The position numbers and the translations under genes are program-made. Source: a virus. From it: a stretch of 32,939 nucleotides of DNA. Position 1 is the first letter of the stretch, and every line of letters starts with the position of its first letter. Below are positions 3,090 to 17,131 of this stretch, in pieces. The notes beneath the pieces were generated by a model that saw nothing but the letters and a program-made list of their open reading frames with translations, was not told the DNA's origin and did no database searches. The stretch lies in the IMG/VR virus record IMGVR_UViG_3300042562_002564, positions 1 to 32,939 of that record, one strand, 5' to 3'.

Positions 3090-3515
3090 ATGACACCATT
3101 TCAAAGTAAAGTATTAAATTTTTTAAATAAAGATTATAATAAAAATACATTACCTAATTATAATTTTAATTTTTTTAGAGATATTATGTTTATCGCTAAT
3201 ACTTCTATTTCAGATGATTTAATTAATCGTTATGGTGTTGATCAAAATAGTGTTGAATTTTATGATATTTTAAAAGGTTGGTGTAGACAAAATTATGGTG
3301 ATGGTAAATATGCGATACCTGGAGATACTATACGTTTAATTAAAATGGAAGACGATCCACAACCAATACGGCCAAATACAATAGGTATTGTAAGAGAAAT
3401 ACAAACTGTAAGTACTTTTAATGAAGATCACTTAATAGTTGATTGGCAAAATGGTAGAAAATTAAATTTAATCGTTGGATTAGATGAGTTTGAGAGAATA
3501 AAAGATGGTGAATGA
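3090..3515 (+). CDS. DUF4314-like domain protein
   Basis: The protein has 141 residues. Its C-terminal part, from about residue 77, matches the small phage domain DUF4314: G-D-T-I-R-L-I-K-M-x-D-D at the start, a G-I-V-R-E-I-Q turn, then D-W-Q-N-G-R-K-L-N-L-I-V-G-L-D-E-F. DUF4314 is common in phage genomes and has no established function; its fold resembles an SH3-like beta barrel. The N-terminal 75 residues are unfamiliar and include a W-C-R motif. The gene starts one base after the previous stop (TAG then TATG), and its TGA overlaps the ATG of the metallopeptidase at 3512, so the two are probably translationally coupled. Confidence 0.75.
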   Translation: MTPFQSKVLNFLNKDYNKNTLPNYNFNFFRDIMFIANTSISDDLINRYGVDQNSVEFYDILKGWCRQNYGDGKYAIPGDTIRLIKMEDDPQPIRPNTIGIVREIQTVSTFNEDHLIVDWQNGRKLNLIVGLDEFERIKDGE

Positions 3516-3925
3516 TGAAAAAATTAATTAAACGTATATTAAAAGAAGAAGTATCCAATATAGTTAGAAATAACATTAACGAAGGTATTGTCGAAGATTT
3601 TATTGAATTTGGTAAGAGTGAATTATCATTAGGTGACGATTTCAAAATAAATTTAACAGACAATACTGATAGTGTTGATACTTTAGGTAATTATGATATT
3701 GAAGGAAAAGAGATTACCGTAGTTAAAAAGAATAGAGCAATACCTGATATAATTAGATCAATTGCACATGAAATGGTACACCATAATCAAAACGTAAGGG
3801 GTGACTTAAGGGGTAACAAAGGTGAAGGTGAAAAAGGTTCTCCTTGGGAAGATGAGGCGAATGCTAGGGCTGGTAGATTAGTTAGACAATTTGGGGATGA
3901 GAATCCTGAAATTTATGACTTATAA
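3512..3925 (+). CDS. Tagged zinc metallopeptidase (HExxH)
   Basis: This 137-residue protein contains a classic zinc-binding helix, HEMVH at residues 86-90, preceded by I-I-R-S-I-A. A downstream acidic helix (WEDEANARAG) could supply the third ligand. Small proteins of this shape in phages are usually annotated as putative gluzincin-type metallopeptidases. The first 12 residues (MMKKLIKRILKE) are basic and hydrophobic and end in L-K-E, matching the capsid-targeting pattern seen around it. It overlaps the DUF4314 gene by four bases (ATGA). If packed in the head, it would be a protease delivered to the host; a role in assembly is the main alternative. The catalytic call is good, the substrate unknown. 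Confidence 0.82.
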   Translation: MMKKLIKRILKEEVSNIVRNNINEGIVEDFIEFGKSELSLGDDFKINLTDNTDSVDTLGNYDIEGKEITVVKKNRAIPDIIRSIAHEMVHHNQNVRGDLRGNKGEGEKGSPWEDEANARAGRLVRQFGDENPEIYDL

Positions 3926-4314
3926 AAAGTATTACCTATAGAGATATTATTATTCTCACAAAATCCTTCATTTACTTCTATATTACCGTCTGAAAATTCT
4001 GAAGGTTTAATAATTGATATGTCATTAGGATACGCACTTTTAATATCTACAATAGTATCTCCGTTCACAAAAATCATCTCAATAGGGAAGTTAACGTTCT
4101 TCATCCAAAAACCACTACTAACGTAGTCATAATACATACCACAGTTTTGACAAAGATTGTCTCTATACATTAAACCAGTAACTTTTTCTTCTTCAGTACT
4201 AGGTACTTCACACTCAACGTCAATTTCTTCACCATTATTATTCGTAATAGTTATCAGACATTTATTTTTAAATGGTATTTGTGTGTCTTCAGATATAATA
4301 TCTAACAATTTCAT
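3913..4314 (-). CDS. Tagged DUF192 family protein
   Basis: I place the start at ATG 4314, giving 133 residues; a longer upstream reading is possible but has a composition unlike a protein. The body matches DUF192 (PF02643): G-L-M-Y-R-D-N-L near residue 42, then G-M-Y-Y-D-Y, G-F-W-M-K-N-V-N-F-P-I-E-M-I-F-V-N and an I-V-D-I-K strand. DUF192 is a small beta-barrel family of unknown function, often secreted in bacteria and archaea. This copy has no signal peptide. It starts MKLLDIISE, which fits the (I/L)-x-E capsid-targeting pattern, so its export route may be the virion. Its 3' end overlaps the convergent metallopeptidase gene by 13 bases. Confidence 0.8.
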   Translation of the reverse strand: MKLLDIISEDTQIPFKNKCLITITNNNGEEIDVECEVPSTEEEKVTGLMYRDNLCQNCGMYYDYVSSGFWMKNVNFPIEMIFVNGDTIVDIKSAYPNDISIIKPSEFSDGNIEVNEGFCENNNISIGNTFYKS

Positions 4315-4318
4315 ATTA

Positions 4319-4326
4319 ATAAATAG
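4319..4326 (-). promoter_or_regulatory. CTATTTAT element upstream of the DUF192 gene
   Basis: Reading the minus strand, CTATTTATTAAT runs into the ATG at 4314. It is a one-base variant of the ATATTTAT element and sits very close to the start codon, so it is a weaker candidate than the others. Confidence 0.3.
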
Positions 4327-4355
4327 TTGACAAATGAATAAAATAATATTATAAT
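4327..4355 (+). promoter_or_regulatory. TTGACA-N17-TATAAT promoter
   Basis: TTGACA at 4327-4332 and TATAAT at 4350-4355 are separated by exactly 17 bases, a perfect sigma-70 consensus. It points at the small basic gene starting at 4378, with an expected transcript start near 4362. This is unexpected in a phage of a Bacteroidota host, whose main sigma factor prefers TTTG/TAnnTTTG, and AT-rich DNA can produce TATAAT by chance. Confidence 0.5.
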
Positions 4356-4377
4356 TATATAATAAAAAAATATATTT

Positions 4378-4554
4378 ATGCCAAAAAGTAAACATAGAAA
4401 AAATCAAAAAGAAAAATCTAAGGCTAGAAGCCAAAGGATTAAGGCGGAACAACAGAAGTATCAAAAGGCATTTCAAGAAGAATTCTTGAAAGAAATACAG
4501 ACTTTAAGGGATAGACAGTTAAGTATTGAAGAAACACAAAAAACCGAAGGATAA
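4378..4554 (+). CDS. Small basic Lys/Gln-rich protein
   Basis: This 58-residue reading frame starts MPKSKHRKNQKEKSKAR and continues as one long, charged, probably fully helical chain (QQKYQKAFQEEFLKEIQTLRDR). I recognise no family. The strongly basic first third suggests nucleic-acid or ribosome binding, but that is only inference from charge. It has a perfect TTGACA/TATAAT promoter 23 bases upstream and ends inside a strong hairpin terminator, so it forms a single-gene unit. The gene lies on the plus strand between two minus-strand genes. An ATATTTAT-like sequence also runs into its ATG. Confidence 0.7.
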   Translation: MPKSKHRKNQKEKSKARSQRIKAEQQKYQKAFQEEFLKEIQTLRDRQLSIEETQKTEG

Positions 4555-4566
4555 TACCTTCGGTTT
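4541..4566. terminator. Bidirectional hairpin terminator
   Basis: AAACCGAAGG, a six-base loop ATAATA, and CCTTCGGTTT form a perfect 10-bp stem, flanked by A-runs on the left and TTTATTT on the right. It closes the small basic gene (stop 4552-4554) and the convergent secreted-protein gene (stop at 4565-4567). Confidence 0.8.
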
Positions 4567-5059
4567 ATTTCTTACTGTAATAGGTGGAATTTTTATTAAT
4601 CAATATATTACTATACTTTTCTTTTTTATAGTAGTTTATTTGAGTAAATTCAACGTAATCACGAAAAATAATTTTAAACTTAATCTTTTTTCCTGATTCT
4701 TTAATTGTGATGTAATATGTATCACCTTTATGTTTGATTTTACTTATATTATAAATTCTAAATGAACCATTACAATCATGTAAATCCAATTCTTTAGTAG
4801 TAAAGTCAAAATAATAGAAGTATGAACCATTTTTTTCAGACGATATGGTGTCTTTAGATAAATTATCAACTTTTCTAAAAGTAGTTTTACCTTTAACAGT
4901 TTCTTCTTTAGGGAAATGAGAATCAATTACAAACCCTTTATTATTAATTGTGTTAATACCATCACTTATTACCCAACCTTCTTTTTTAGAGGTATAACAC
5001 TGAGAATATGAGTTAACAGATAATACTATTAATACGAATAACAAAATTAAATTTTTCAT
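4565..5059 (-). CDS. Secreted protein of unknown function with Bacteroidota-type signal peptide
   Basis: The protein is 164 residues from ATG 5059; an upstream in-frame ATG at 5080 falls at or before the expected transcript start, so I prefer 5059. Residues 1-20 form a signal peptide (MKNLILLFVLIVLSVNSYSQ) with probable cleavage after YS or SQ, typical of Bacteroidota. A Cys follows the Gln, but the lipobox is poor. The mature part is beta-rich with two Cys, near residue 21 and in the HDCNG motif; I recognise no domain. It has its own host-type promoter (5078-5109) and shares a terminator with the gene at 4378, so it is an autonomous unit of the moron kind. Two other minus-strand genes share the same promoter and leader design. 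Confidence 0.78.
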   Translation of the reverse strand: MKNLILLFVLIVLSVNSYSQCYTSKKEGWVISDGINTINNKGFVIDSHFPKEETVKGKTTFRKVDNLSKDTISSEKNGSYFYYFDFTTKELDLHDCNGSFRIYNISKIKHKGDTYYITIKESGKKIKFKIIFRDYVEFTQINYYKKEKYSNILINKNSTYYSKK

Positions 5060-5077
5060 AACAGTTGTTTTATAGGA

Positions 5078-5109
5078 CAAATGTAAAAAGAAATAATGAA
5101 TCCACCAAA
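5078..5109 (-). promoter_or_regulatory. Host-type promoter TTTG-N20-TACATTTG
   Basis: On the minus strand, TTTG (5106-5109), 20 bases, then TACATTTG (5078-5085) match the Bacteroidota primary sigma factor consensus TTTG/TAnnTTTG. TCCTATAAAAC follows, and a similar sequence follows the other two promoters of this type. The expected leader is short, about 12-15 bases. Confidence 0.75.
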
Positions 5110-6630: not shown

Positions 6631-7488
6631 ATGCGTATAATTATAACGGAAACACAATTAAAAAAGGTTTTATTGTATGAAACCAAACAAGAGGTAGTTA
6701 CTGACGAATATTTAGATAAAGCCAAAGATATTGTGACTAAATTACAAAATAGAGGTTTTGGATTAGATGCTGCGTGTGCAATGGCAGGAAATATATGGGC
6801 AGAATCCCAGTTTGATTCGACTAATGAGGGATCTAATGGTGCATTTGGATTATTACAATGGTTAGGTGATAGAAAAAAGGCTTTAAATTCTTTGGCATCT
6901 CATAGAGGTGTAGATGTAAATAGTGAAAAACTACAATTAGATTTTATTAAGATAGAATTGAAAGATGGGTATAAAGTAGGTGGTGAATTAATACCTAATT
7001 TACCTAGTGGTATTAAAGATTCTCCAAAATTTGAAATAAACCAATTTAATAGTGCGATGAAAAGTGACACTATACCAGCAAAGGCTGAAAGTTTCGCTAC
7101 GAAATCCGAAAGATGTGGTGACTGCGGTGGGACAATAAATATAAGAAAGCAATCCGCAAAAAGAATACATGATTATATTAATGGAACCTATAAAAAAACT
7201 AATGGTAATGTTAAAAGTACTACAAGTGCCACCACCAAAAAAGAAGAAAAGGGTTCACATTCAGTAGGTAGTACTGTATACCCTAAAGAATCTGAAGGAT
7301 ATGCAAATGTTAGAAAAGATGCTAATAGAGAAAGTGATAGAGTTGCTAAAATAATGTCACCGAATAAAATTGGTACGATAACTAAAATTAAAACCGATGA
7401 TGATGGGTACCAATGGTATCAAGTAACCTTAGATAAAAAAGTAGATGGGTTTACAACTGGATGGGTTAGATCAGACGCTATTAAATAA
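6631..7488 (+). CDS. Tagged tail-tip lysozyme with C-terminal SH3b domain
   Basis: The protein has 285 residues. It starts with a tag (MRIIITETQLKKVLLYE) carrying both I-T-E and L-Y-E. A phage tail lysozyme-type domain follows, about residues 25-180. A-A-C-A-M-A-G-N-I-W-A-E-S-Q-F-D then G-A-F-G-L-L-Q-W-L-G-D-R-K is its signature, with the Glu of AES as the likely catalytic acid. A Cys pair (CGDCGG) closes the domain. After a Lys/Thr/Ser linker, residues 215-285 form a bacterial SH3 domain (Y-A-N-V-R-K-D-A-N, Y-Q-W-Y-Q-V, G-W-V-R), usually a cell-wall binder. It should cut peptidoglycan during entry. The tag suggests head packaging, which would be unusual for a tail lysozyme. Confidence 0.85.
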   Translation: MRIIITETQLKKVLLYETKQEVVTDEYLDKAKDIVTKLQNRGFGLDAACAMAGNIWAESQFDSTNEGSNGAFGLLQWLGDRKKALNSLASHRGVDVNSEKLQLDFIKIELKDGYKVGGELIPNLPSGIKDSPKFEINQFNSAMKSDTIPAKAESFATKSERCGDCGGTINIRKQSAKRIHDYINGTYKKTNGNVKSTTSATTKKEEKGSHSVGSTVYPKESEGYANVRKDANRESDRVAKIMSPNKIGTITKIKTDDDGYQWYQVTLDKKVDGFTTGWVRSDAIK

Positions 7489-9408: not shown

Positions 9409-10824
9409 ATGAAAAAAGTTCAAACCCTTAACGAAGAAATACAAAAAATGAGAAAATTAATGTCATTTAACATTAATGAAAATTCTCATGATTCACTATC
9501 TGAAGAAAATTTTAATAAGAGTACTGAAGGAAAAAATACTGATCCTGAAGAGGGAGAGTGTGATAGAGTATATGGTGGACCACCTGAGGTGTCATTCCAA
9601 ATGAGTAATCAGTTAAATGATTTATTAGAAAAACAATTAAATGTTATAGAACCTCAGATAAAAGTTAAGGTAGTTGCAACTGGACCAGAAAATATATTTT
9701 TCAAAATAGGTGACGTTGAGTTACCATTATCAAAAACTAGTAAGGGTGTATATATGTTTAAAGTAACTGATAGATATATCCCATTCTCAACCGATATTTC
9801 AGTATCTTTAGTTAGGGAAGAACTTTTAAAGGATAGATGTTTTAGATTATTATATGATAGATATGATTCGATTAAAAATCAAATAGATAATGAAACTATA
9901 AAAATGAGATTAATACCTGAAGGTTCTACGCCAATATCATTCAAAATGATGGTGATTGGTAATAAGAGGGACTTAAAAAGGACTATTAAACAAAGTGTTA
10001 ATGGTGCCAAATTAGTTAAACTGGAGGATATTACATTACTATCATTTAATAGAAGGTTTTTCATTAAACTAAATGATAATCTTTATGGTGAGATAGAATC
10101 ATCTTTTAAGGTTAAACTTACTAAAATTCAAATAAACGGTGCAGATATACCTAAAAGTTGGGGTGAGCCCGATCCAAATAAAACTGATCCAGAACCAACA
10201 AAATGTTTTTGTAATGATGTAGAAACAGGTGAACAGATTACATATGAGTGCGGTAGCCCGTTACCAGAAAGATGTAAAGATGGTGAAATTGTTTTTGATT
10301 TTGCAGTAGAAGCGATTAAAAACTTTCCAATTGATGAGGCAGTATTAACTCAAGAAGCGAAAGATATAATTGATGAGAACATTGTTAAAATATGGAATCC
10401 TATCCCACAATATAGAAAAGAAGAGTATTTAGAATTTTTAGAAGATAAAACTATTGTAGTTAATGCATATGCTTCTATAGATGCGTTATCCAATTTCCCT
10501 GATGGTGGTCGTTACGCGGGTTGTTCTAAATACGGTTTGGGTAAAGGTCCGAGAGTAAAATACAATCAATGTTTAAGTGAGGCTAGAGCAAAAGCAGTAG
10601 TAGAATACCTAAAAACAATTGCGAATGGTGCATTTAAAGATGTGAATTTTGTTGCAGTAGGTAAAGGTGAAACAAACCAATGGAGTGGGTTAGTTTGGAA
10701 TCAACCTGAGACAAAAATAAAAGACGGTGTACCACAGAATGTTAAAAGTCCTTACAGTAATGAAGAAACTAGACCAGATAGACGTTTTGAGATTAAATTC
10801 CCTGCTTACCGTAAAGAGGAATAA
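9409..10824 (+). CDS. Tagged protein with C-terminal OmpA-like peptidoglycan-binding domain
   Basis: The protein has 471 residues. The N-terminus (MKKVQTLNEEIQKMRKLM, then F-N-I-N-E) carries L-N-E and I-N-E and nearly repeats that of the gene at 11530. A beta-rich middle follows. A Cys cluster appears around residues 263-288 (C-F-C, then two spaced Cys). Residues about 315-465 fit an OmpA-like domain: I-V-V-N-A-Y-A-S, then N-Q-C-L-S-E-A-R-A-K-A-V-V-E-Y-L, F-V-A-V-G-K-G-E-T-N, and finally R-P-D-R-R-F-E-I. This fold binds peptidoglycan. In a phage particle it could anchor to the cell wall during entry. There is no signal peptide. It faces a convergent CAP-protein gene four bases away. Confidence 0.8.
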   Translation: MKKVQTLNEEIQKMRKLMSFNINENSHDSLSEENFNKSTEGKNTDPEEGECDRVYGGPPEVSFQMSNQLNDLLEKQLNVIEPQIKVKVVATGPENIFFKIGDVELPLSKTSKGVYMFKVTDRYIPFSTDISVSLVREELLKDRCFRLLYDRYDSIKNQIDNETIKMRLIPEGSTPISFKMMVIGNKRDLKRTIKQSVNGAKLVKLEDITLLSFNRRFFIKLNDNLYGEIESSFKVKLTKIQINGADIPKSWGEPDPNKTDPEPTKCFCNDVETGEQITYECGSPLPERCKDGEIVFDFAVEAIKNFPIDEAVLTQEAKDIIDENIVKIWNPIPQYRKEEYLEFLEDKTIVVNAYASIDALSNFPDGGRYAGCSKYGLGKGPRVKYNQCLSEARAKAVVEYLKTIANGAFKDVNFVAVGKGETNQWSGLVWNQPETKIKDGVPQNVKSPYSNEETRPDRRFEIKFPAYRKEE

Positions 10825-10828
10825 CTAC

Positions 10829-11434
10829 CTACTGACGCTTATAAACAACTGTAAGGTTTAGTACTGCGTAAAATCCGTTTTTACCTTTGTAGGTACCGTA
10901 TTTTGTAGAAACACCGCTCATTAAGAATACTTCTTTTCCATTATCAGTAATTTGTTGATTAAATACATCTCTAATCACAAAACAGTGATCAGGAGATGTC
11001 TCCCAATAATCTACAATTGATTTTGCTATATCACCATACGTTAATAGTTTGTAATTTTTTGTCTTAAATAAACAAATTTCAAAACCGTCTACTACATTAA
11101 CACCACCTTTAAATTTATATGTAGAATAAGATTCTCCCATAATTGAGGACTTTAATTTTTCACTATATAGTTCCAACCTACCATCTGGATGATATACTTT
11201 TTCTTCACTGTGTAATTTTTGACATCTTATTTTTGAAACATTGTCACTCACCAATCGTGAGTAATGCATATTGTTATTACCTAATGAATCTCTTACCACA
11301 TTAATCTCAACAATAATCAGACTATCCAAAAGTCGGTAATCGATATTGTTTACGTCCATTACTTTCGAACCATCTCTCTGAGAAAAAACTACTGATGGTA
11401 GGATAAACATCAAAATCAAAATTAAGTTTTTCAT
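10829..11434 (-). CDS. Secreted CAP/SCP-domain protein (1)
   Basis: The protein has 201 residues with a signal peptide MKNLILILMFILPSVVFSQ, cleaved near FSQ in the Bacteroidota manner. The mature part resembles a divergent CAP (SCP/PR-1) domain: an early helix L-L-D-S-L-I-I-V-E-I-N-V-V-R, L-V-S-D-N-V-S-K-I-R-C-Q-K-L, then W-E-T-S-P-D-H-C and late strands G-V-S-T-K-Y-G and G-F-Y-A-V-L-N-L. CAP proteins are secreted, with varied and often unclear activities. The gene lies antisense between two late-type plus-strand genes, with its own host-type promoter (11455-11485). That makes it an autonomous unit, likely expressed early or constitutively. A role in altering the host surface or blocking superinfection is speculation. 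Confidence 0.75.
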   Translation of the reverse strand: MKNLILILMFILPSVVFSQRDGSKVMDVNNIDYRLLDSLIIVEINVVRDSLGNNNMHYSRLVSDNVSKIRCQKLHSEEKVYHPDGRLELYSEKLKSSIMGESYSTYKFKGGVNVVDGFEICLFKTKNYKLLTYGDIAKSIVDYWETSPDHCFVIRDVFNQQITDNGKEVFLMSGVSTKYGTYKGKNGFYAVLNLTVVYKRQ

Positions 11435-11454
11435 AGTTGTTACGTTTATAAGAA

Positions 11455-11485
11455 CAAATATACACCATTTTTTTTATTATACAAA
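11455..11485 (-). promoter_or_regulatory. Host-type promoter TTTG-N19-TATATTTG
   Basis: On the minus strand, TTTG (11482-11485), 19 bases, then TATATTTG (11455-11462) match the Bacteroidota consensus. TTCTTATAAAC follows, nearly the same as at the other two secreted-protein genes. It faces the CAP gene starting at 11434 and lies back to back with the ATATTTAT element at 11505. Confidence 0.75.
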
Positions 11486-11504
11486 TTTTTTTACCGTTTT
11501 TTTT

Positions 11505-11512
11505 ATATTTAT
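11505..11512 (+). promoter_or_regulatory. ATATTTAT element, putative phage promoter
   Basis: ATATTTATAAATAAAATA starts 25 bases before the ATG at 11530, preceded by a T-run as at several other copies. It is divergent from the host-type promoter at 11455. Confidence 0.5.
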
Positions 11513-11529
11513 AAATAAAATAATTTATT

Positions 11530-13488
11530 ATGAGAAAAAATACGTTAACAGAAGAAATATATAGAATGAGAAAATTAATGGGACATGACTCAAATGAATA
11601 TAGAGAAAATGTCACTTCATTCGATAGACTTTTAGAAGAAAAATTGGTAAAAAAATACCTAATAAAGGAACAGGAAGAGGAAGTTCCTGTATTTTCTGAT
11701 TGGTCTAAGGGTGGTAAGTTTAATTGGGAAAATGCGAAATTAAAAGATATTATTGAATATATTAGAGAAGTTGACGAGTATTTTGGTGGTTCTTTTTTAA
11801 ATAATCCATCGTACACAACAATGATGGATTGGTTTGAAGGCAATGATAGTGAAAGTGTAAGGAATTCATTAAAGGAGTGGATGTTTGGTGACATATATTA
11901 TGGGATTAAAAAATCTGAGGATGTAAAACAAACTAAGAAAAATGTGGTTGCACCTGATCAGTACGATAAAAATCTTCAGTCAGAAGTAACAACTATATTA
12001 GACAACGCATCAAAAATTGATCTTAAAACATTTAATGTTACCGATAAAAACTTAAAAAAATCAGTTGATACTTTAGTATCGTCCAGAACATTAGAAAAAT
12101 TAAATAAGGAATTAATTGCAATTAATAATGGTAAAGTTTTTCTAAAAAAGGAAATATTAGAACCATTAAAAACTAATCTTAATGTTTTAATAGATTTTAG
12201 TAAAAATCCTAAGACTGATCCTAATTCTATGGAATCTTTGAAAGATGTTGTAGATTATCTGATAGGATTTAATTTAAAAGATAAAAAAGAAATAGGTTTA
12301 GATGTAGATGATGAGAATGTCAAAATAGATGTTAATACAGATCAAAGAATTGGGATTAAAAATAGTGTAATGAAAAAATTATCTGCTGAAATTGAGTCTG
12401 TTGGTGAGGATACATATAGAAAATTACTTAAGAAAATTACTAATATAACAATTACTGATAAACCTACAGAACTTAAACAGTTTAAAGTTGAGGATGAGGC
12501 GGGTAAAGGTGTACCTATTATGGAAGAAGGAGATTCTGATATATTCCAGTACCCACCAGAAAATACACCTGAAGGTGAAAGAAATAATTTAAGTAATAAT
12601 TTCTTTCCAGATGATGGTACGTCTATGTCTTCAGAGGCAATTGATGGTATTAGAGAACAAGTGAGATTATTAAGAAAGTTTATAGACACTCAAGATTCAG
12701 AGGTTGAAGCACAAAGAACTGAAAATGATTTAGGTGAAGAATTTAAATTAGATGTGTCATCAATAAACATATTTATTTATTCCTCAACCAGTAAAGTAAG
12801 AACATCATATAAAAGTAAAGATAAAAGTTTTAGTGAAGATAATAATATAAAATTAGCGGAAGATAGAAGTAATGTTATAGAAAACTCAGTTAGAGGTATT
12901 TTGAAACAATATAAGTTAGATGGTTATAATATAATCTTAGCCTCTAGAATAGAAAAACCTAATATCGGTCCAGGTTGGGAGAAAATAGATGGTAAATATG
13001 CTGATGGTTCAGACGTACCTATAACCGCATATGGTGCAATGTTCCAAGAGGCATACAAAAAAGACAATGAACTAAAACCACAGTTATTTTATGGTAATAG
13101 AGGTACTGCTTGGGCAAAGAAAGCGTCAGAAAAATTAGGTAGAGAAGTTGCACAACAAGAATTATCTCAAGAATATAACGATATATACGGACCATTTAGA
13201 ATGAATTTGGCTGGTATTAGCGTTACATTAAAAAAACCAACTATAGTAACTAAATCAGAGGTCGGTGAGGATTATTTTGTTATTGCAGTACCAGGAATGG
13301 GAATAGAGCTACAGTCAAATGGAGAATTTAGTTTTAAAGATTCTTGGAAAAATTTTAAGAGAGGTATTAAAAAATTAAAAAGAAAAATAAAGAAGTCTTT
13401 AAGAAATCTTAAACCTAAACGTAGGTTTTTTGGTAAAGCACCCGATTTCTCAAAAGTTTGTCAGACTTGTTGTCCTAAATGGGGTTAA
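11530..13488 (+). CDS. Large tagged protein with OmpA-like region and strongly basic C-terminus
   Basis: The protein has 652 residues. The N-terminus (MRKNTLTEEIYRMRKLM) is close to that of the gene at 9409. A second segment, F-D-R-L-L-E-E-K-L to Y-L-I-K-E near residue 55, could be the real processing point. The middle is helical and Lys/Asp-rich. Residues about 415-575 look like a divergent OmpA-like domain: I-N-I-F-I-Y-S-S-T-S early, L-A-E-D-R-S-N-V-I-E-N-S-V, then Y-N-I-I-L-A-S-R-I-E. The last 50 residues are extremely basic (KNFKRGIKKLKRKIKKSLRN) and end in a CQTCCP Cys cluster. That tail could bind DNA inside the head or act on membranes; I cannot tell which. Confidence 0.75.
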   Translation: MRKNTLTEEIYRMRKLMGHDSNEYRENVTSFDRLLEEKLVKKYLIKEQEEEVPVFSDWSKGGKFNWENAKLKDIIEYIREVDEYFGGSFLNNPSYTTMMDWFEGNDSESVRNSLKEWMFGDIYYGIKKSEDVKQTKKNVVAPDQYDKNLQSEVTTILDNASKIDLKTFNVTDKNLKKSVDTLVSSRTLEKLNKELIAINNGKVFLKKEILEPLKTNLNVLIDFSKNPKTDPNSMESLKDVVDYLIGFNLKDKKEIGLDVDDENVKIDVNTDQRIGIKNSVMKKLSAEIESVGEDTYRKLLKKITNITITDKPTELKQFKVEDEAGKGVPIMEEGDSDIFQYPPENTPEGERNNLSNNFFPDDGTSMSSEAIDGIREQVRLLRKFIDTQDSEVEAQRTENDLGEEFKLDVSSINIFIYSSTSKVRTSYKSKDKSFSEDNNIKLAEDRSNVIENSVRGILKQYKLDGYNIILASRIEKPNIGPGWEKIDGKYADGSDVPITAYGAMFQEAYKKDNELKPQLFYGNRGTAWAKKASEKLGREVAQQELSQEYNDIYGPFRMNLAGISVTLKKPTIVTKSEVGEDYFVIAVPGMGIELQSNGEFSFKDSWKNFKRGIKKLKRKIKKSLRNLKPKRRFFGKAPDFSKVCQTCCPKWG

Positions 13489-13507
13489 TAATTTAAAAAT
13501 ATATATT

Positions 13508-14032
13508 ATGAAAATTAAAAAAAATAATGTTGTAGTTACACTTACAGAAAGTGATATCGCATCAATTAAAAAATATCTTTTAAAAGAAGAAAAAATATCA
13601 TTTAAGTTTTGTTTTAAGACATATCCTGAATGGTTAAGATCCGACAGTACGGATGCAGGTAATGCAGGTACTAACGCTTCTTCAGATAATACTTTATTAA
13701 AGAAAATGAAAACTGGTGTAACATTTTCAGTTACTGGATGTGAAGGGTTAAAGAATGATGAAATTAACGCTGGTATCCTATCAAAAATAACTGATGTCAC
13801 TTTAAGAGAAAAGGCAGTAGAAAAAACAGTTAATTTTTGTAGAAGACATATAGACGAAGTGATTAAGGATCTTAAGTCTAATGATAGTAAATCAAAAAGA
13901 AAACATATTAAAGACGATTTTACACCACAAACAGGTGAATCTGTAGATGAATGGGTAAGTAAATATGATTTTACTACAGATATTGCGAATTTAGTACAGA
14001 TTACTAAATGTCTTTATAATACACAATTCTAA
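13508..14032 (+). CDS. Tagged basic protein of unknown function
   Basis: I choose ATG 13508 (MKIKKNNVVVTLTESD), giving 174 residues; an in-frame upstream ATG at 13430 lies inside the previous gene. The tag carries L-T-E and then Y-L-L-K-E at residues 24-28, the same two-part layout as at 9236. The body has four Cys (F-C-F, T-G-C-E-G, N-F-C-R-R and K-C-L-Y) that could pair. It also has a helical segment D-V-T-L-R-E-K-A-V-E-K-T-V with a following basic patch. I recognise no family. It follows the OmpA-like gene by 19 bases and ends just before a 30-bp palindromic terminator, closing this transcription unit. Confidence 0.72.
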   Translation: MKIKKNNVVVTLTESDIASIKKYLLKEEKISFKFCFKTYPEWLRSDSTDAGNAGTNASSDNTLLKKMKTGVTFSVTGCEGLKNDEINAGILSKITDVTLREKAVEKTVNFCRRHIDEVIKDLKSNDSKSKRKHIKDDFTPQTGESVDEWVSKYDFTTDIANLVQITKCLYNTQF

Positions 14033-14035
14033 TAA

Positions 14036-14065
14036 AACAATGGTGGTTAATTAACCACCATTGTT
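14036..14065. terminator. Perfect 30-bp palindrome, bidirectional terminator
   Basis: AACAATGGTGGTTAA is followed at once by its exact reverse complement, giving 15-bp arms with no spacer. It separates the convergent genes ending at 14032 (plus) and 14047 (minus) and includes the last codons of the CAP gene. A terminator is the simplest reading; a protein-binding site is possible. Confidence 0.7.
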
Positions 14066-14547
14066 GAGGATTCATCTACCATACCGTTAGGTAATAGTAC
14101 AATAGATACTCCGATTTTATTAATATCTTCAGTTAACATATTTTTCTTATGTTTTTCAGAAGTCAACCAACTATTGTAAATTCTATTAGTTACTTCAGAC
14201 ACATATTCCTTAGTCATAGGGAAAACACCAAATGATTTACTGAAATATACGTTTTCTGCAACAATACTATTACTTTGAATGTCGGAGTGGTAGATTTTAT
14301 TTTTATTCAACATATTCACTGACCACTCATCTGCGTAGGTTGATAATGATACATCTTTAGTGAGAATACTTAATCCGTTACTCACTCTAAAAGAGTTTAT
14401 CATACCAACCAAAACAGTTTCCAAAGAATCAATATTCATCTGAGAAACTACTTTCTTATTATTTTCAATGGAATAAGAAACCATATCTTTTTGGGAATAA
14501 GCCTCTACACCCAAAAGAAGACTGAATAAAATCACTAAATTTTTCAT
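14047..14547 (-). CDS. Secreted CAP/SCP-domain protein (2)
   Basis: The protein has 166 residues with a signal peptide MKNLVILFSLLLGVEAYSQ. The mature part is a clearer CAP (SCP/PR-1) domain than the one at 10829: a helix L-V-G-M-I-N-S-F-R-V-S-N-G-L, then Y-A-D-E-W-S, the metal-site-like I-Y-H-S-D, A-E-N-V-Y, and W-L-T-S-E-K-H-K-K-N-M-L followed by I-G-V-S-I-V. Of the two His ligands typical of CAP proteins, both appear to be kept. The C-terminus is short (TMVVN), and its end is embedded in the palindromic terminator. It has its own host-type promoter and nearly the same leader and signal peptide as the other two minus-strand secreted proteins. Confidence 0.82.
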   Translation of the reverse strand: MKNLVILFSLLLGVEAYSQKDMVSYSIENNKKVVSQMNIDSLETVLVGMINSFRVSNGLSILTKDVSLSTYADEWSVNMLNKNKIYHSDIQSNSIVAENVYFSKSFGVFPMTKEYVSEVTNRIYNSWLTSEKHKKNMLTEDINKIGVSIVLLPNGMVDESSTMVVN

Positions 14548-14568: not shown

Positions 14569-14600
14569 CAAATGTAATAAGAATTATTTAATCTGCCAAA
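14569..14600 (-). promoter_or_regulatory. Host-type promoter TTTG-N20-TACATTTG
   Basis: On the minus strand, TTTG (14597-14600), 20 bases, then TACATTTG (14569-14576) match the Bacteroidota consensus. TTCTTATAAAAC follows, as at 11455. It lies just after the stop of the ClpC gene, so it restarts transcription in the same direction. Confidence 0.75.
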
Positions 14601-14604
14601 TATT

Positions 14605-17070
14605 TTATTCACTTTTTATGATAATTTCATCTTTTGCCTTAGAATAACTTATTTTTATGGTACCATTATCCTTTACATTACCACTTAAAATTTCTTCAGA
14701 TATAGGATCTTCGATATGTTTTTGTATTGCCCTATTTAGAGGTCTAGCCCCATAATCTTCACTATACCCATCATCAATTAAATAATCCCTAACCGTTTTG
14801 TTGATAATTAAGTTATAACCTATTTCACCAACTCTCTTCTTAAGTTTTACTAATTCCAAATCAACAATTTTCCCAATTTCTTCTTTAGTTAAAGATTTAA
14901 ATATGATTACATCATCTAACCTATTAAGGAATTCTGGTGGGAATTGTTTTTTTAATTCATCAGTTAATAGACTTTCTTTAATAGAGTCTTCTCTCTCTAA
15001 TTTTGACTTAGTACCAAATCCGACACCTGTACCAAAATCTTGTAATTTTTTAACACCTACATTAGATGTCATAATAACCATACAATTTTTAAAGTTAACT
15101 TTTCTACCAGAACTATCAGTAAGTTGACCGTCATCCAATAATTGTAATAGTGTATTATAGATTTCTTTATTTGCTTTCTCTATTTCATCAAATAGTACTA
15201 TTGAATATGGTCTTCTTCTCACTTTTTCAGTTAGTTGTCCACCATCACCATGACCAACATATCCTGGAGGAGATCCAATAAGTCTAGATATTGAGTGTTT
15301 CTCTTGAAATTCAGACATATCTAATCTAATTAATGAGTCCTCATCACCAAAAAGGTATTCTGCCAATCTTTTCGCAATATGAGTTTTACCCACACCTGTA
15401 GGACCTAAAAACATAAAAGTACCAATTGGTTTTTTAGGGTTTCGAATACCAACTCTATTTCTTCTAATAGATTTGGCAATCTTTTCCAACGCAATTTCTT
15501 GACCTATAATTGATTTTTTTAACTCACCTTCAATCTCTAACATCCTTTTACCTTGATCCCCACTAATTCTTTTTAATGGTATTCCAGTCATTGAGGACAC
15601 CACTTCATTAACATCCTCAATGGTTACAACAGTTCTTTCGTTATTCAAATTTGTTAACCATTTTTCTTTTTCTAAAACTAATTTTTCATTAACCTCCCTT
15701 TCCTCATCTCTTAACTTTGCAGCCTCTTCGTATTTTTGTTTCTTAACAACCTCACTTTTTCTGTTCTTAATTTCAACAATCTTCTCCTCCAATTTACTTA
15801 TAGATGATGGTGGTTTGATAGATAGTTGACTTTTTGAACCTATTTCATCCATAATATCAATTGCCTTATCAGGAAATTCCCTATCTGTAATATATCTGTC
15901 AGCCATTTTAACACAATGTTCAATAGTTACTAATGGGTAAGTTACTTTATGGTAAGTTTCATATGAAGATTTAATTTTATCTAATATTTGAATTGTTTCC
16001 TCTATTGTAGGTGGTTCAATTAGAACTTGTTGGAATCTTCTCGCTAATGCACCATCTTTTTCGATATGTTCTCTATATTCATCTAAAGTAGTTGCACCAA
16101 TCAACTGTATATCACCCCTAGCCAACGCAGGTTTTAATACATTCGCAGCGTCCATAGAACCTGATGAGTTACCCGCACCTACCATAGTATGTAATTCGTC
16201 AATAAATAAGATTACATTATCGACTTCCATTAATTCATCCACCACACCTTTTATTCTTTCCTCAAACTGACCTCTATACTTAGTACCTGCAACTAAAGAC
16301 GTTAAATCTAATGACACAACTCTCTTATCTAATAAAGTTCTAGGTGCATCACCCTGTGCAATTTTTAACGCTAAACCCTCAATAATTGTAGTTTTACCAA
16401 CACCAGGGTCACCAATTAAGACTGGATTATTTTTTTTCTTCCTAGCCAAAATCTGTGCAACTCTTTGTATGGACTCATCCCTACCAATTACAGGATCAAT
16501 TTTACCTTCAGACGCCCTTTTAGTTACATCCACAGAAAAATTATTTAAAATAGGGGTGTCGTTGGATTTAGTACTACCTTTTGGTTTGGGTATTTTACTG
16601 AAATTGTCTTCACCATCTCCACTTACTGGCTCAATAGAGTTTTCGATAGAAGTTTTGTAACTGTTATAATTTATTTTCATCCCTTTTAATATACTACTTA
16701 TGTCATTTTTTACTTTTAATGTTGCCAACAAAATATGTTCCGTATCCAAATATTCATTATTCATCAAATCACATTCTTTTTCTGCACCCTTCAAAATATT
16801 TTCAGTTACAATTTCCAAAGGGAACTCTTTTTTATTTACCAACATAGTGTTAAAATCGTCCCTATCCTTATGTAATTTCTTCTCAATACTCTTATGTAGT
16901 TTATCTACATCAACACCCATACTTATTAACGCCTTAACCGCATTATTATTATAATCATTTATCAATGAGATGATTATATGTTCAATCTTTACTTCATTGT
17001 CCCCATAAAATTTAGCCTGTTTGATGGACATATTTATGATTTTCTTCACCTTAGGCAAAATCTTTTTCAT
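14605..17070 (-). CDS. clpC: ClpC-like AAA+ unfoldase
   Basis: I place the start at ATG 17070 (MKKILPKVKK), giving 821 residues, full length for ClpC. In order there are an N-terminal Clp repeat domain (about 1-140) and a first AAA+ module with Walker A G-D-P-G-V-G-K-T near residue 222 and Walker B V-I-L-F-I-D-E-L-H. A UVR-type linker coil (Y-E-E-A-A-K-L-R-D-E-E-R) follows. The second AAA+ module has G-P-T-G-V-G-K-T and S-I-V-L-F-D-E-I-E-K. A V-G-F tripeptide in G-T-G-V-G-F-G-T stands where ClpC carries its ClpP-docking loop, so it could recruit host ClpP; no clpP is in this window. An ATATTTAT element 27 bases upstream suggests phage-controlled, probably late, expression. Confidence 0.92.
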   Translation of the reverse strand: MKKILPKVKKIINMSIKQAKFYGDNEVKIEHIIISLINDYNNNAVKALISMGVDVDKLHKSIEKKLHKDRDDFNTMLVNKKEFPLEIVTENILKGAEKECDLMNNEYLDTEHILLATLKVKNDISSILKGMKINYNSYKTSIENSIEPVSGDGEDNFSKIPKPKGSTKSNDTPILNNFSVDVTKRASEGKIDPVIGRDESIQRVAQILARKKKNNPVLIGDPGVGKTTIIEGLALKIAQGDAPRTLLDKRVVSLDLTSLVAGTKYRGQFEERIKGVVDELMEVDNVILFIDELHTMVGAGNSSGSMDAANVLKPALARGDIQLIGATTLDEYREHIEKDGALARRFQQVLIEPPTIEETIQILDKIKSSYETYHKVTYPLVTIEHCVKMADRYITDREFPDKAIDIMDEIGSKSQLSIKPPSSISKLEEKIVEIKNRKSEVVKKQKYEEAAKLRDEEREVNEKLVLEKEKWLTNLNNERTVVTIEDVNEVVSSMTGIPLKRISGDQGKRMLEIEGELKKSIIGQEIALEKIAKSIRRNRVGIRNPKKPIGTFMFLGPTGVGKTHIAKRLAEYLFGDEDSLIRLDMSEFQEKHSISRLIGSPPGYVGHGDGGQLTEKVRRRPYSIVLFDEIEKANKEIYNTLLQLLDDGQLTDSSGRKVNFKNCMVIMTSNVGVKKLQDFGTGVGFGTKSKLEREDSIKESLLTDELKKQFPPEFLNRLDDVIIFKSLTKEEIGKIVDLELVKLKKRVGEIGYNLIINKTVRDYLIDDGYSEDYGARPLNRAIQKHIEDPISEEILSGNVKDNGTIKISYSKAKDEIIIKSE

Positions 17071-17076
17071 ATACGA

Positions 17077-17108
17077 TTTGTTTTTTATTATAAATATCCT
17101 TATCTTTG
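17077..17108 (+). promoter_or_regulatory. Host-type promoter for the methyltransferase, TTTG-N20-TATCTTTG
   Basis: TTTG (17077-17080), 20 bases, then TATCTTTG (17101-17108) match the Bacteroidota consensus and face the methyltransferase ATG at 17132. The spacer contains the ATATTTAT element that faces the other way toward clpC, so the two promoters overlap. Confidence 0.7.
17090..17097 (-). promoter_or_regulatory. ATATTTAT element upstream of clpC
   Basis: On the minus strand, GGATATTTATAATAAAAAAC starts 27 bases before the ClpC start at 17070. It is among the best matches to the recurrent element. It lies entirely inside the spacer of the divergent host-type promoter. Confidence 0.55.
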
Positions 17109-17131
17109 TATTCAAATTTAATAAATAAAAT

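What the first reader, a model, noticed from the sequence alone, without database searches (positions are those of the whole stretch)
10829..14547. Two phage-encoded CAP/SCP-domain proteins
CAP (SCP/PR-1) domains are widespread in secreted bacterial and eukaryotic proteins, but I know of no established role in phages. The copy at 14047 keeps IYHSD, AENVY and WLTSEKH; the one at 10829 is more divergent. Two diverged copies under the same control suggest selection for a surface or periplasmic activity, such as superinfection exclusion or envelope change.
Basis: partly seen in the sequence, partly recalled or inferred. Interest (0 to 1): 0.6.

Follow-up and report, generated by a model that had tools for sequence, protein, structure and literature searches.

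The report
Swappable secreted proteins paired with virion genes
Both genes do encode secreted CAP-fold proteins; in this group of phages such proteins sit in interchangeable two-gene cassettes, each facing a probable virion protein gene, which suggests but does not prove that they block later phages from entering the infected cell.

Summary
The gene at 14047 is a clear CAP protein (Pfam PF00188, E=4e-11). The gene at 10829 matches no Pfam family, but a CAP profile built without its type finds it at E=1e-8, and its predicted structure matches only CAP folds among the top 17 PDB hits. Both have Bacteroidota-type signal peptides and host-type TAnnTTTG promoters, which the flanking late genes mostly lack.

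About 20 related IMG/VR phage contigs show a wider pattern. Minus-strand secreted genes (diverged CAPs, DUF2927 or unknown folds) lie tail-to-tail with plus-strand late genes whose 35-40-residue leader is constant and whose body varies, often OmpA-like. Body and secreted gene are exchanged together: window and L004 are 84-89% identical outside positions 9531-11407 and unrelated inside, with the break points in the partner leader and the signal peptide. The same pairs recur at other loci under other leaders (permutation p=5e-5).

Best explanation (confidence 0.42): an early periplasmic superinfection-exclusion protein aimed at the cognate virion protein, like T4 Spackle, T5 Llp or P22 SieA. That role is inferred; no function was tested. 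CAP proteins in phages were already known; the swappable convergent pair was not found in the papers searched.

The parts
10829..11434 (-). CAP1: secreted CAP-fold protein, 201 aa, diverged (type A)
   Evidence: ORF; HMM E=1.3e-8; AF2/Foldseek; hhalign; dN/dS 0.135 on the mature part
11378..11434 (-). CAP1 signal peptide MKNLILILMFILPSVVFSQ (predicted from sequence; Q after the presumed cleavage site)
   Evidence: sequence; first 9 codons conserved in L004 although the mature part is unrelated
11455..11462 (-). TATATTTG, match to the Bacteroidota sigma-A -7 box (TAnnTTTG), 28 nt before the ATG
   Evidence: consensus in PMC9723704
11482..11485 (-). TTTG, candidate -33 element, 19 nt upstream of the -7 box
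   Evidence: sequence
9409..10824 (+). Partner of CAP1: 471-aa probable virion or late protein, leader MKKVQTLNEEIQKMRKLMSF, C-terminal OmpA-like domain; ends 4 bp before the CAP1 stop codon
   Evidence: OmpA PF00691 E=6.5e-4, below the curated cut-off; OmpA-type proteins are seven of the eight PDB matches, all weak (E>=0.14); leader conserved and body replaced in L004
10546..10677 (+). OmpA-like segment of the partner (residues 380-423; YNQCLSEARAKAV...GKGET, with DRRFEI further on)
9531..11407 (.). Exchanged block: body of the partner plus mature CAP1; unrelated to L004 although the flanks are 84-89% identical
   Evidence: blastn
14047..14547 (-). CAP2: secreted CAP protein, 166 aa (type I)
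   Evidence: PF00188 E=4.2e-11; 90-93% identical in L002 and L004, 57% in L009; dN/dS 0.14
14491..14547 (-). CAP2 signal peptide MKNLVILFSLLLGVEAYSQ (predicted from sequence)
   Evidence: homology with L030 stops inside codon 3 of this gene (W14540), L030 having another secreted gene in the slot
14569..14576 (-). TACATTTG, -7 box of CAP2, 29 nt before the ATG
14597..14600 (-). TTTG, candidate -33 element of CAP2, 20 nt upstream of the -7 box
   Evidence: sequence
11530..13488 (+). Partner-type gene in the CAP2 slot: 652 aa, leader MRKNTLTEEIYRMRKLMGH, degenerate OmpA-like motif NNIKLAEDRS
   Evidence: no Pfam OmpA hit
11510..11517 (+). TATAAATA, T4-type late promoter consensus before the 11530 gene
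13508..14032 (+). 174-aa protein between the 11530 gene and CAP2; its stop is 14 bp from the CAP2 stop
   Evidence: conserved in L002, L004, L009

Best explanation
CAP1 and CAP2 are periplasmic superinfection-exclusion proteins. Shown by sequence: they are CAP-fold proteins with signal peptides, they carry host sigma-A-type promoters on the strand opposite to the late genes, and each belongs to a two-gene cassette with a convergent late gene whose leader is constant and whose body varies. Inferred: after infection the host polymerase makes the secreted protein early, it is exported to the periplasm (presumably at the peptidoglycan, as for the DalA lipoprotein, whose NCBIfam model weakly matches CAP2), and there it binds the matching variable, often OmpA-like, protein that a second virion brings into the envelope, so that the second phage cannot complete entry. 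A phage that acquires a new pair would escape exclusion by resident phages and still exclude its own kind, which would explain why the pair is swapped as a unit between constant leaders.
For: CAP assignment. Promoters: TAnnTTTG in 28 of 38 secreted genes against 18 of 258 plus-strand genes and 0 of 23 partners; T4 late box TATAAATA in 0 of 38 secreted genes and 25 of 258 plus-strand genes (first count 25/35 against 20/265, p=1e-16). Pairing: secreted gene and partner stops lie -8 to +58 bp apart in nearly all cassettes. Pair-wise exchange: window against L004, homology breaks at codon 40 of the partner and codon 9 of the signal peptide; L050 against L049, 97-98% identical flanks with a replaced block that starts at codon 35 of the partner and ends upstream of the CAP start. 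Type match between body and secreted protein, permutation p=5e-5, n=24. The same pair occurs under different leaders at different sites: L117/L122 69%/63%, L116/L008 54%/60%, L122/L015 58%/81% (partner/secreted). A secreted protein would be expected to meet a virion protein only when one is delivered into the envelope (inference). Known systems with the same parts: T4 Spackle, early and periplasmic, inhibits tail lysozyme gp5 (PMC7677548); T5 llp has an early promoter and lies beside pb5, which has a late promoter, on the opposite strand (AY587007); P22 SieA escape mutants map to ejection proteins 16 and 20 (PMC10883804).
Against: No function, expression or interaction was tested. Adjacent genes can be exchanged together through physical linkage alone. 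Pairing is not absolute: L121 has a DUF2927 gene without a partner, and the L120 partner does not match its DUF2927 gene by type. The partners are called virion proteins only from their late position, leaders and late-type promoters; none has been found in a virion. The OmpA evidence is weak (below Pfam's cut-off) and absent in several partner types. Some secreted proteins are DUF2927 or unknown folds, so one shared inhibitory mechanism is not given.
Confidence: 0.42

Rival explanations
1. Envelope or peptidoglycan modification: the secreted CAPs act on the host cell wall (for example on transpeptidases, as proposed for DalA) to help virion release, delay lysis or change the surface, without recognising the partner protein. 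The slots are simply tolerant insertion sites.
For: CAP2 has a weak match to the DalA family (E=6.6e-5), and DalA binds peptidoglycan and co-precipitates with Pal and L,D-transpeptidases (PMC10470522). Early host-type promoters fit host takeover. DUF2927 proteins can fill the same slots.
Against: Does not explain why body type of the late gene and secreted type travel together across sites and leaders, nor the rapid swapping between near-identical phages.
Confidence: 0.22
2. Polymorphic effector-immunity pairs: the partner body is a virion-delivered effector that would harm the envelope, and the secreted protein is the cognate immunity factor protecting the infected cell, as in bacterial polymorphic toxins with a constant trafficking part and swappable C-termini.
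For: Constant leader plus variable body next to a variable small protein; pairs exchange as units.
Against: No toxin domain found in any partner body; immunity genes in polymorphic toxin systems usually follow on the same strand (own knowledge), here they are convergent.
Confidence: 0.14
3. Linkage without function: the secreted genes are unrelated cargo genes in recombination hot spots, and co-exchange with the neighbouring late gene only reflects short conserved leaders on both sides that act as recombination anchors.
For: The break points fall in or next to the two leaders; promoter-plus-signal-peptide DNA is nearly identical between genes of different fold (L119 CAP against L120 DUF2927, 88 bp at 96.6%); discordant or partnerless cases exist.
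Against: Pairs stay together after moving to new sites under different leaders and down to about 30-60% identity; purifying selection.
Confidence: 0.18
4. The 10829 protein is not a CAP protein and the similarity is due to the shared signal peptide.
For: No Pfam hit; first AF2 model and the first comparison without signal peptides were inconclusive.
Against: HMM and profile tests on mature parts with a larger family, invariant histidines and the second AF2 model.
Confidence: 0.04

Closest known systems
CAP/SCP superfamily, bacterial SCP type (PF00188; BB0689, YkwD, DalA)
   Same: Fold, conserved histidines, secretion; CAP2 over the Pfam cut-off
   Different: Phage-encoded and highly diverged; not DalA orthologues (22.8 bits against a cut-off of 200); no lipobox seen in CAP1 or CAP2
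T4 Spackle (gp61.3)
   Same: Works like: small early secreted periplasmic phage protein of a T4-like phage (PMC7677548, PMC7650644)
   Different: No sequence match to a Spackle family in PHROGs; target unproven; Spackle is not known as a swappable pair
T5 Llp / pb5
   Same: Exclusion gene with early promoter beside a late virion gene on the opposite strand
   Different: Llp is a lipoprotein that acts on the receptor FhuA (PMC9586334); head-to-head, not tail-to-tail; not CAP
P22 SieA against ejection proteins
   Same: Exclusion aimed at proteins delivered into the envelope; several diverged SieA types (PMC10883804)
   Different: SieA is an inner-membrane protein expressed from the prophage; not CAP
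CAP proteins of Bacillus phages Slash and Stills; PHROG 16914
   Same: CAP domain, secreted, phage-encoded (PMC3861416, PMC4541274)
   Different: LysM fusions in Gram-positive siphophages, proposed as a lysogenic conversion gene or of unknown role; no paired cassette reported there
Bacterial polymorphic toxin-immunity systems (PMC3482391)
   Same: Constant N-terminus, exchangeable body, variable neighbour
   Different: Convergent orientation, secreted second gene, no toxin domain found

Membership tests
CAP superfamily (PF00188), CAP2 | Pfam profile over the curated cut-off | tested here: met
   44.2 bits against 21.1, E=4.2e-11
CAP superfamily (PF00188), CAP1 | Pfam profile over the curated cut-off | tested here: not met
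   no hit at E<=1; homology comes from intermediate phage CAPs
CAP superfamily, CAP1 | alpha-beta-alpha CAP fold | tested here: met
   AF2 pLDDT 77, pTM 0.80; first 17 PDB matches all CAP. The alignment given to AF2 contained other CAPs, so this is not wholly independent of the sequence evidence
CAP superfamily, CAP1 and CAP2 | conserved cavity histidines | tested here: met
   two histidines invariant in 15 sequences; the acidic residue between them is present but aligned less surely
CAP superfamily | a biochemical activity (lipid, metal or peptidoglycan binding) | not testable with these tools
   needs purified protein
DalA (NF052539) | score over the equivalog cut-off | tested here: not met
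   22.8 bits against 200
T4 Spackle family | sequence homology to Spackle | tested here: not met
   no Spackle family in the PHROGs matches
Superinfection-exclusion protein (functional class) | early expression from a host-type promoter | tested here: inconclusive
   promoter motif present and statistically enriched; no transcript data
Superinfection-exclusion protein (functional class) | blocks entry of a second related phage | not testable with these tools
   needs expression and phage challenge
OmpA-like peptidoglycan-binding domain (PF00691), partner at 9409 | Pfam profile over the curated cut-off | tested here: not met
   20.4 bits against 27.2, E=6.5e-4; resemblance only: OmpA-type proteins are seven of eight weak PDB matches; motif NxxL[AS]xxR[AS]-like in 14 of 27 partners against 4 of 219 other genes
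Known anti-phage defence families (PADLOC) | match to a PADLOC model | tested here: not met
   no hit for either CAP, the partners or a DUF2927 protein

The most novel reading that the evidence does not exclude
T4-like phages of Bacteroidota carry a polymorphic exclusion system: convergent two-gene cassettes, flanked by a constant leader of a late gene and a constant promoter-plus-signal-peptide, in which a variable envelope-contacting virion protein and its matching periplasmic inhibitor (diverged CAP, DUF2927 or other fold) are exchanged together, giving exclusion types much like incompatibility groups.
Probability: 0.33. Interest if true: 0.82.

Novelty: new variant of a known kind. Interest (0 to 1): 0.62.

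Why it matters
Phage CAP proteins have been noted without a role. The paired, swappable arrangement turns that into a testable claim: each secreted protein should act on the phage that carries the matching partner and not on others. If true, it would give a sequence-readable code for which related phages exclude each other, and a route to new periplasmic inhibitors of phage entry.

Tried and rejected
Single-protein searches of CAP1 against Pfam, NCBIfam and PDB gave nothing. The first AlphaFold2 job, on a poor alignment, was uninformative. Profile comparison that included the signal peptides looked strong but collapsed without them; it was replaced by tests on mature parts with more members. 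An alignment of partner C-termini cut at the wrong place was redone with whole proteins. The idea of a simple tandem duplication of CAP was dropped because the two proteins belong to different types and their slots change independently.

Full report
The record. The window is a whole IMG/VR virus contig of 32,939 bases. A T4-type portal (31078) and terminase (29228) mark it as a T4-like tailed phage. Signal peptides ending in SQ and TAnnTTTG promoters point to a Bacteroidota host; this is inference, as the host is not recorded.

The observation. Both ORFs are real. CAP2 (14047-14547) is over the Pfam CAP cut-off. CAP1 (10829-11434) is too diverged for Pfam. Its mature part was therefore tested with relatives found here. 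An HMM made from the other phage CAPs, without CAP1 and its type-A relatives and without signal peptides, finds it at E=1.3e-8 while the best reversed-sequence decoy has E=0.09. Profile comparison gives P=8e-6. Two histidines are invariant in 15 sequences. The second AlphaFold2 model (pLDDT 77, pTM 0.80) matches BB0689, a Bacillus SCP domain, GAPR-1, PR-1 and other CAP proteins as its first 17 PDB hits. The alignment used for that model included other CAPs, so it adds to the sequence evidence without being wholly independent of it.

Relatives. Scans with CAP1, CAP2, the 7528, 11530 and 17132 proteins and the 21546 protein brought in about 40 related viral contigs, and neighbouring stretches were fetched. 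In nearly all contigs that cover the interval between the 7528 gene and the Clp gene, at least one minus-strand gene with a signal peptide is present. In the G010 phage and in L114 a secreted gene of this kind, with its partner, lies elsewhere.

What fills the slots. Many are CAPs of very different types; an HMM of CAPs recovers them and the two weakest cases, L030 and L049. Others are DUF2927 proteins (E=2e-23, 1.6e-14, 1e-20 in three tested) or unknown (L116:14805-15362; L053:6896-7471).

The pair. Each secreted gene ends within -8 to +58 bp of the end of a plus-strand gene. Those partners share a leader such as TLNEEIQKMRKLMSF or NLTEEIYRMRKLM and then diverge. Several bodies have an OmpA-like segment: Pfam E from 4e-4 to 0.02, always below the curated cut-off, and an NxxL[AS]xxR[AS]-like motif in 14 of 27 partners against 4 of 219 other genes (some of these are orthologues, so the count is not of independent cases).

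Exchange as a unit. Window and L004 share 88.6% identity up to position 9530 and 84% from 11408 on, with no detectable similarity between. The left break is at codon 40 of the partner and the right break at codon 9 of the CAP1 signal peptide. L050 and L049 are 97-98% identical on both sides of a similar replaced block; there the left break is at codon 35 of the partner and the right one lies upstream of the CAP start. In L030 the CAP2 slot holds another secreted gene, with the break inside codon 3. The same body-plus-secreted pair also occurs under another leader at another site in three cases. Body type and secreted type agree more often than shuffled pairs do: 13 concordant pairs against 2.4 expected, p=5e-5, and p=2e-4 without the DUF2927 group. 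Shuffling does not remove shared ancestry, so these p-values are a guide only.

Control. A TAnnTTTG box, the sigma-A -7 element of flavobacteria (PMC9723704), precedes 28 of 38 secreted genes, 18 of 258 plus-strand genes and none of 23 partners; the T4 late box TATAAATA precedes none of the secreted genes, 25 of 258 plus-strand genes and 4 of 23 partners. The secreted genes are thus probably read early by the host polymerase. The promoter-plus-signal-peptide stretch is nearly the same before genes of different fold, for example 88 bp at 96.6% identity between a CAP gene (L119) and a DUF2927 gene (L120), which would let it serve as a recombination anchor.

Mechanism. A secreted protein made early would be expected to meet a virion protein only when a later virion delivers it into the envelope. 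Together with the pairing, this favours exclusion of a second phage. T4 Spackle (periplasmic, early, inhibits tail lysozyme gp5; PMC7677548), T5 Llp (early gene beside the late pb5 gene on the other strand, PMC9586334) and P22 SieA (acts on ejection proteins; PMC10883804) are the closest known cases in how it would work. Membership in those families is not claimed: no sequence match to Spackle was found, and Llp and SieA are a lipoprotein and an inner-membrane protein. The alternative of a peptidoglycan-acting protein is kept open because CAP2 weakly resembles DalA, a peptidoglycan-binding lipoprotein that co-precipitates with Pal, itself an OmpA-domain protein (PMC10470522; the nature of Pal is own knowledge).

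Limits. No expression, binding or exclusion data exist here. The contigs are metagenomic, most of them incomplete. The partners have not been seen in virions. Pairing has exceptions (L121 without a partner, L120 discordant). Physical linkage could explain part of the co-exchange.

Verdict. Observation confirmed. The CAP proteins themselves are new members of a known family; the convergent, swappable pairing with late genes is the new point, rated a new variant of a known kind, interest 0.62.

Noticed in passing
window 4565-5080 (-): A third secreted gene (MKNLILLFVLIVLSVNSYSQ) with the same type of promoter, variable in relatives (49-73% identical), no Pfam match; it has no convergent partner.
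   Followed up: partly
window 3913-4476 (-): DUF192 protein (PF02643, E=4e-18) on the minus strand, conserved in relatives at the same place.
   Followed up: no
window 633, 3512, 5398, 6631, 7528, 13508, 24773, 25813, 28375 (+): Many late genes begin with a short basic amphipathic stretch ending in E (for example MKYIITENQYRILLKE, MRIIITETQLKKVLLYE), reminiscent of capsid-targeting or prohead-protease leaders of T4 internal proteins; even the tail lysozyme at 6631 has one.
   Followed up: partly
L026:2050-5247 and L026:16401-17102: In the G010 phage the Clp gene is interrupted at the Walker A motif (GDPGC...HNTGKTT) and the terminase at ALISC, both looking like inteins.
   Followed up: no
L048:6435-9941: Clp gene of 1168 aa, about 330 aa longer than in the window, with the insertion near residue 578; possibly another intein.
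   Followed up: no
window 14605-17115 (-): Phage-encoded ClpA/ClpB-type ATPase, conserved at 67-96% in the group and beside slot 2.
   Followed up: partly
L112, L118, L119, L120, L121, L123: Secreted DUF2927 proteins (a family resembling metalloproteases, own knowledge) in the same slots as the CAPs, with the same signal peptide and promoter.
   Followed up: partly
L030:5847-6773 (+): Insertion of a gene resembling an NAD-dependent sugar epimerase or dehydratase next to thymidylate synthase, absent from the window.
   Followed up: no
window 3512-3925 (+): Small protein with an HExxH-like motif (IAHEMVHHNQ), possible metalloprotease; no Pfam match over cut-off.
   Followed up: no
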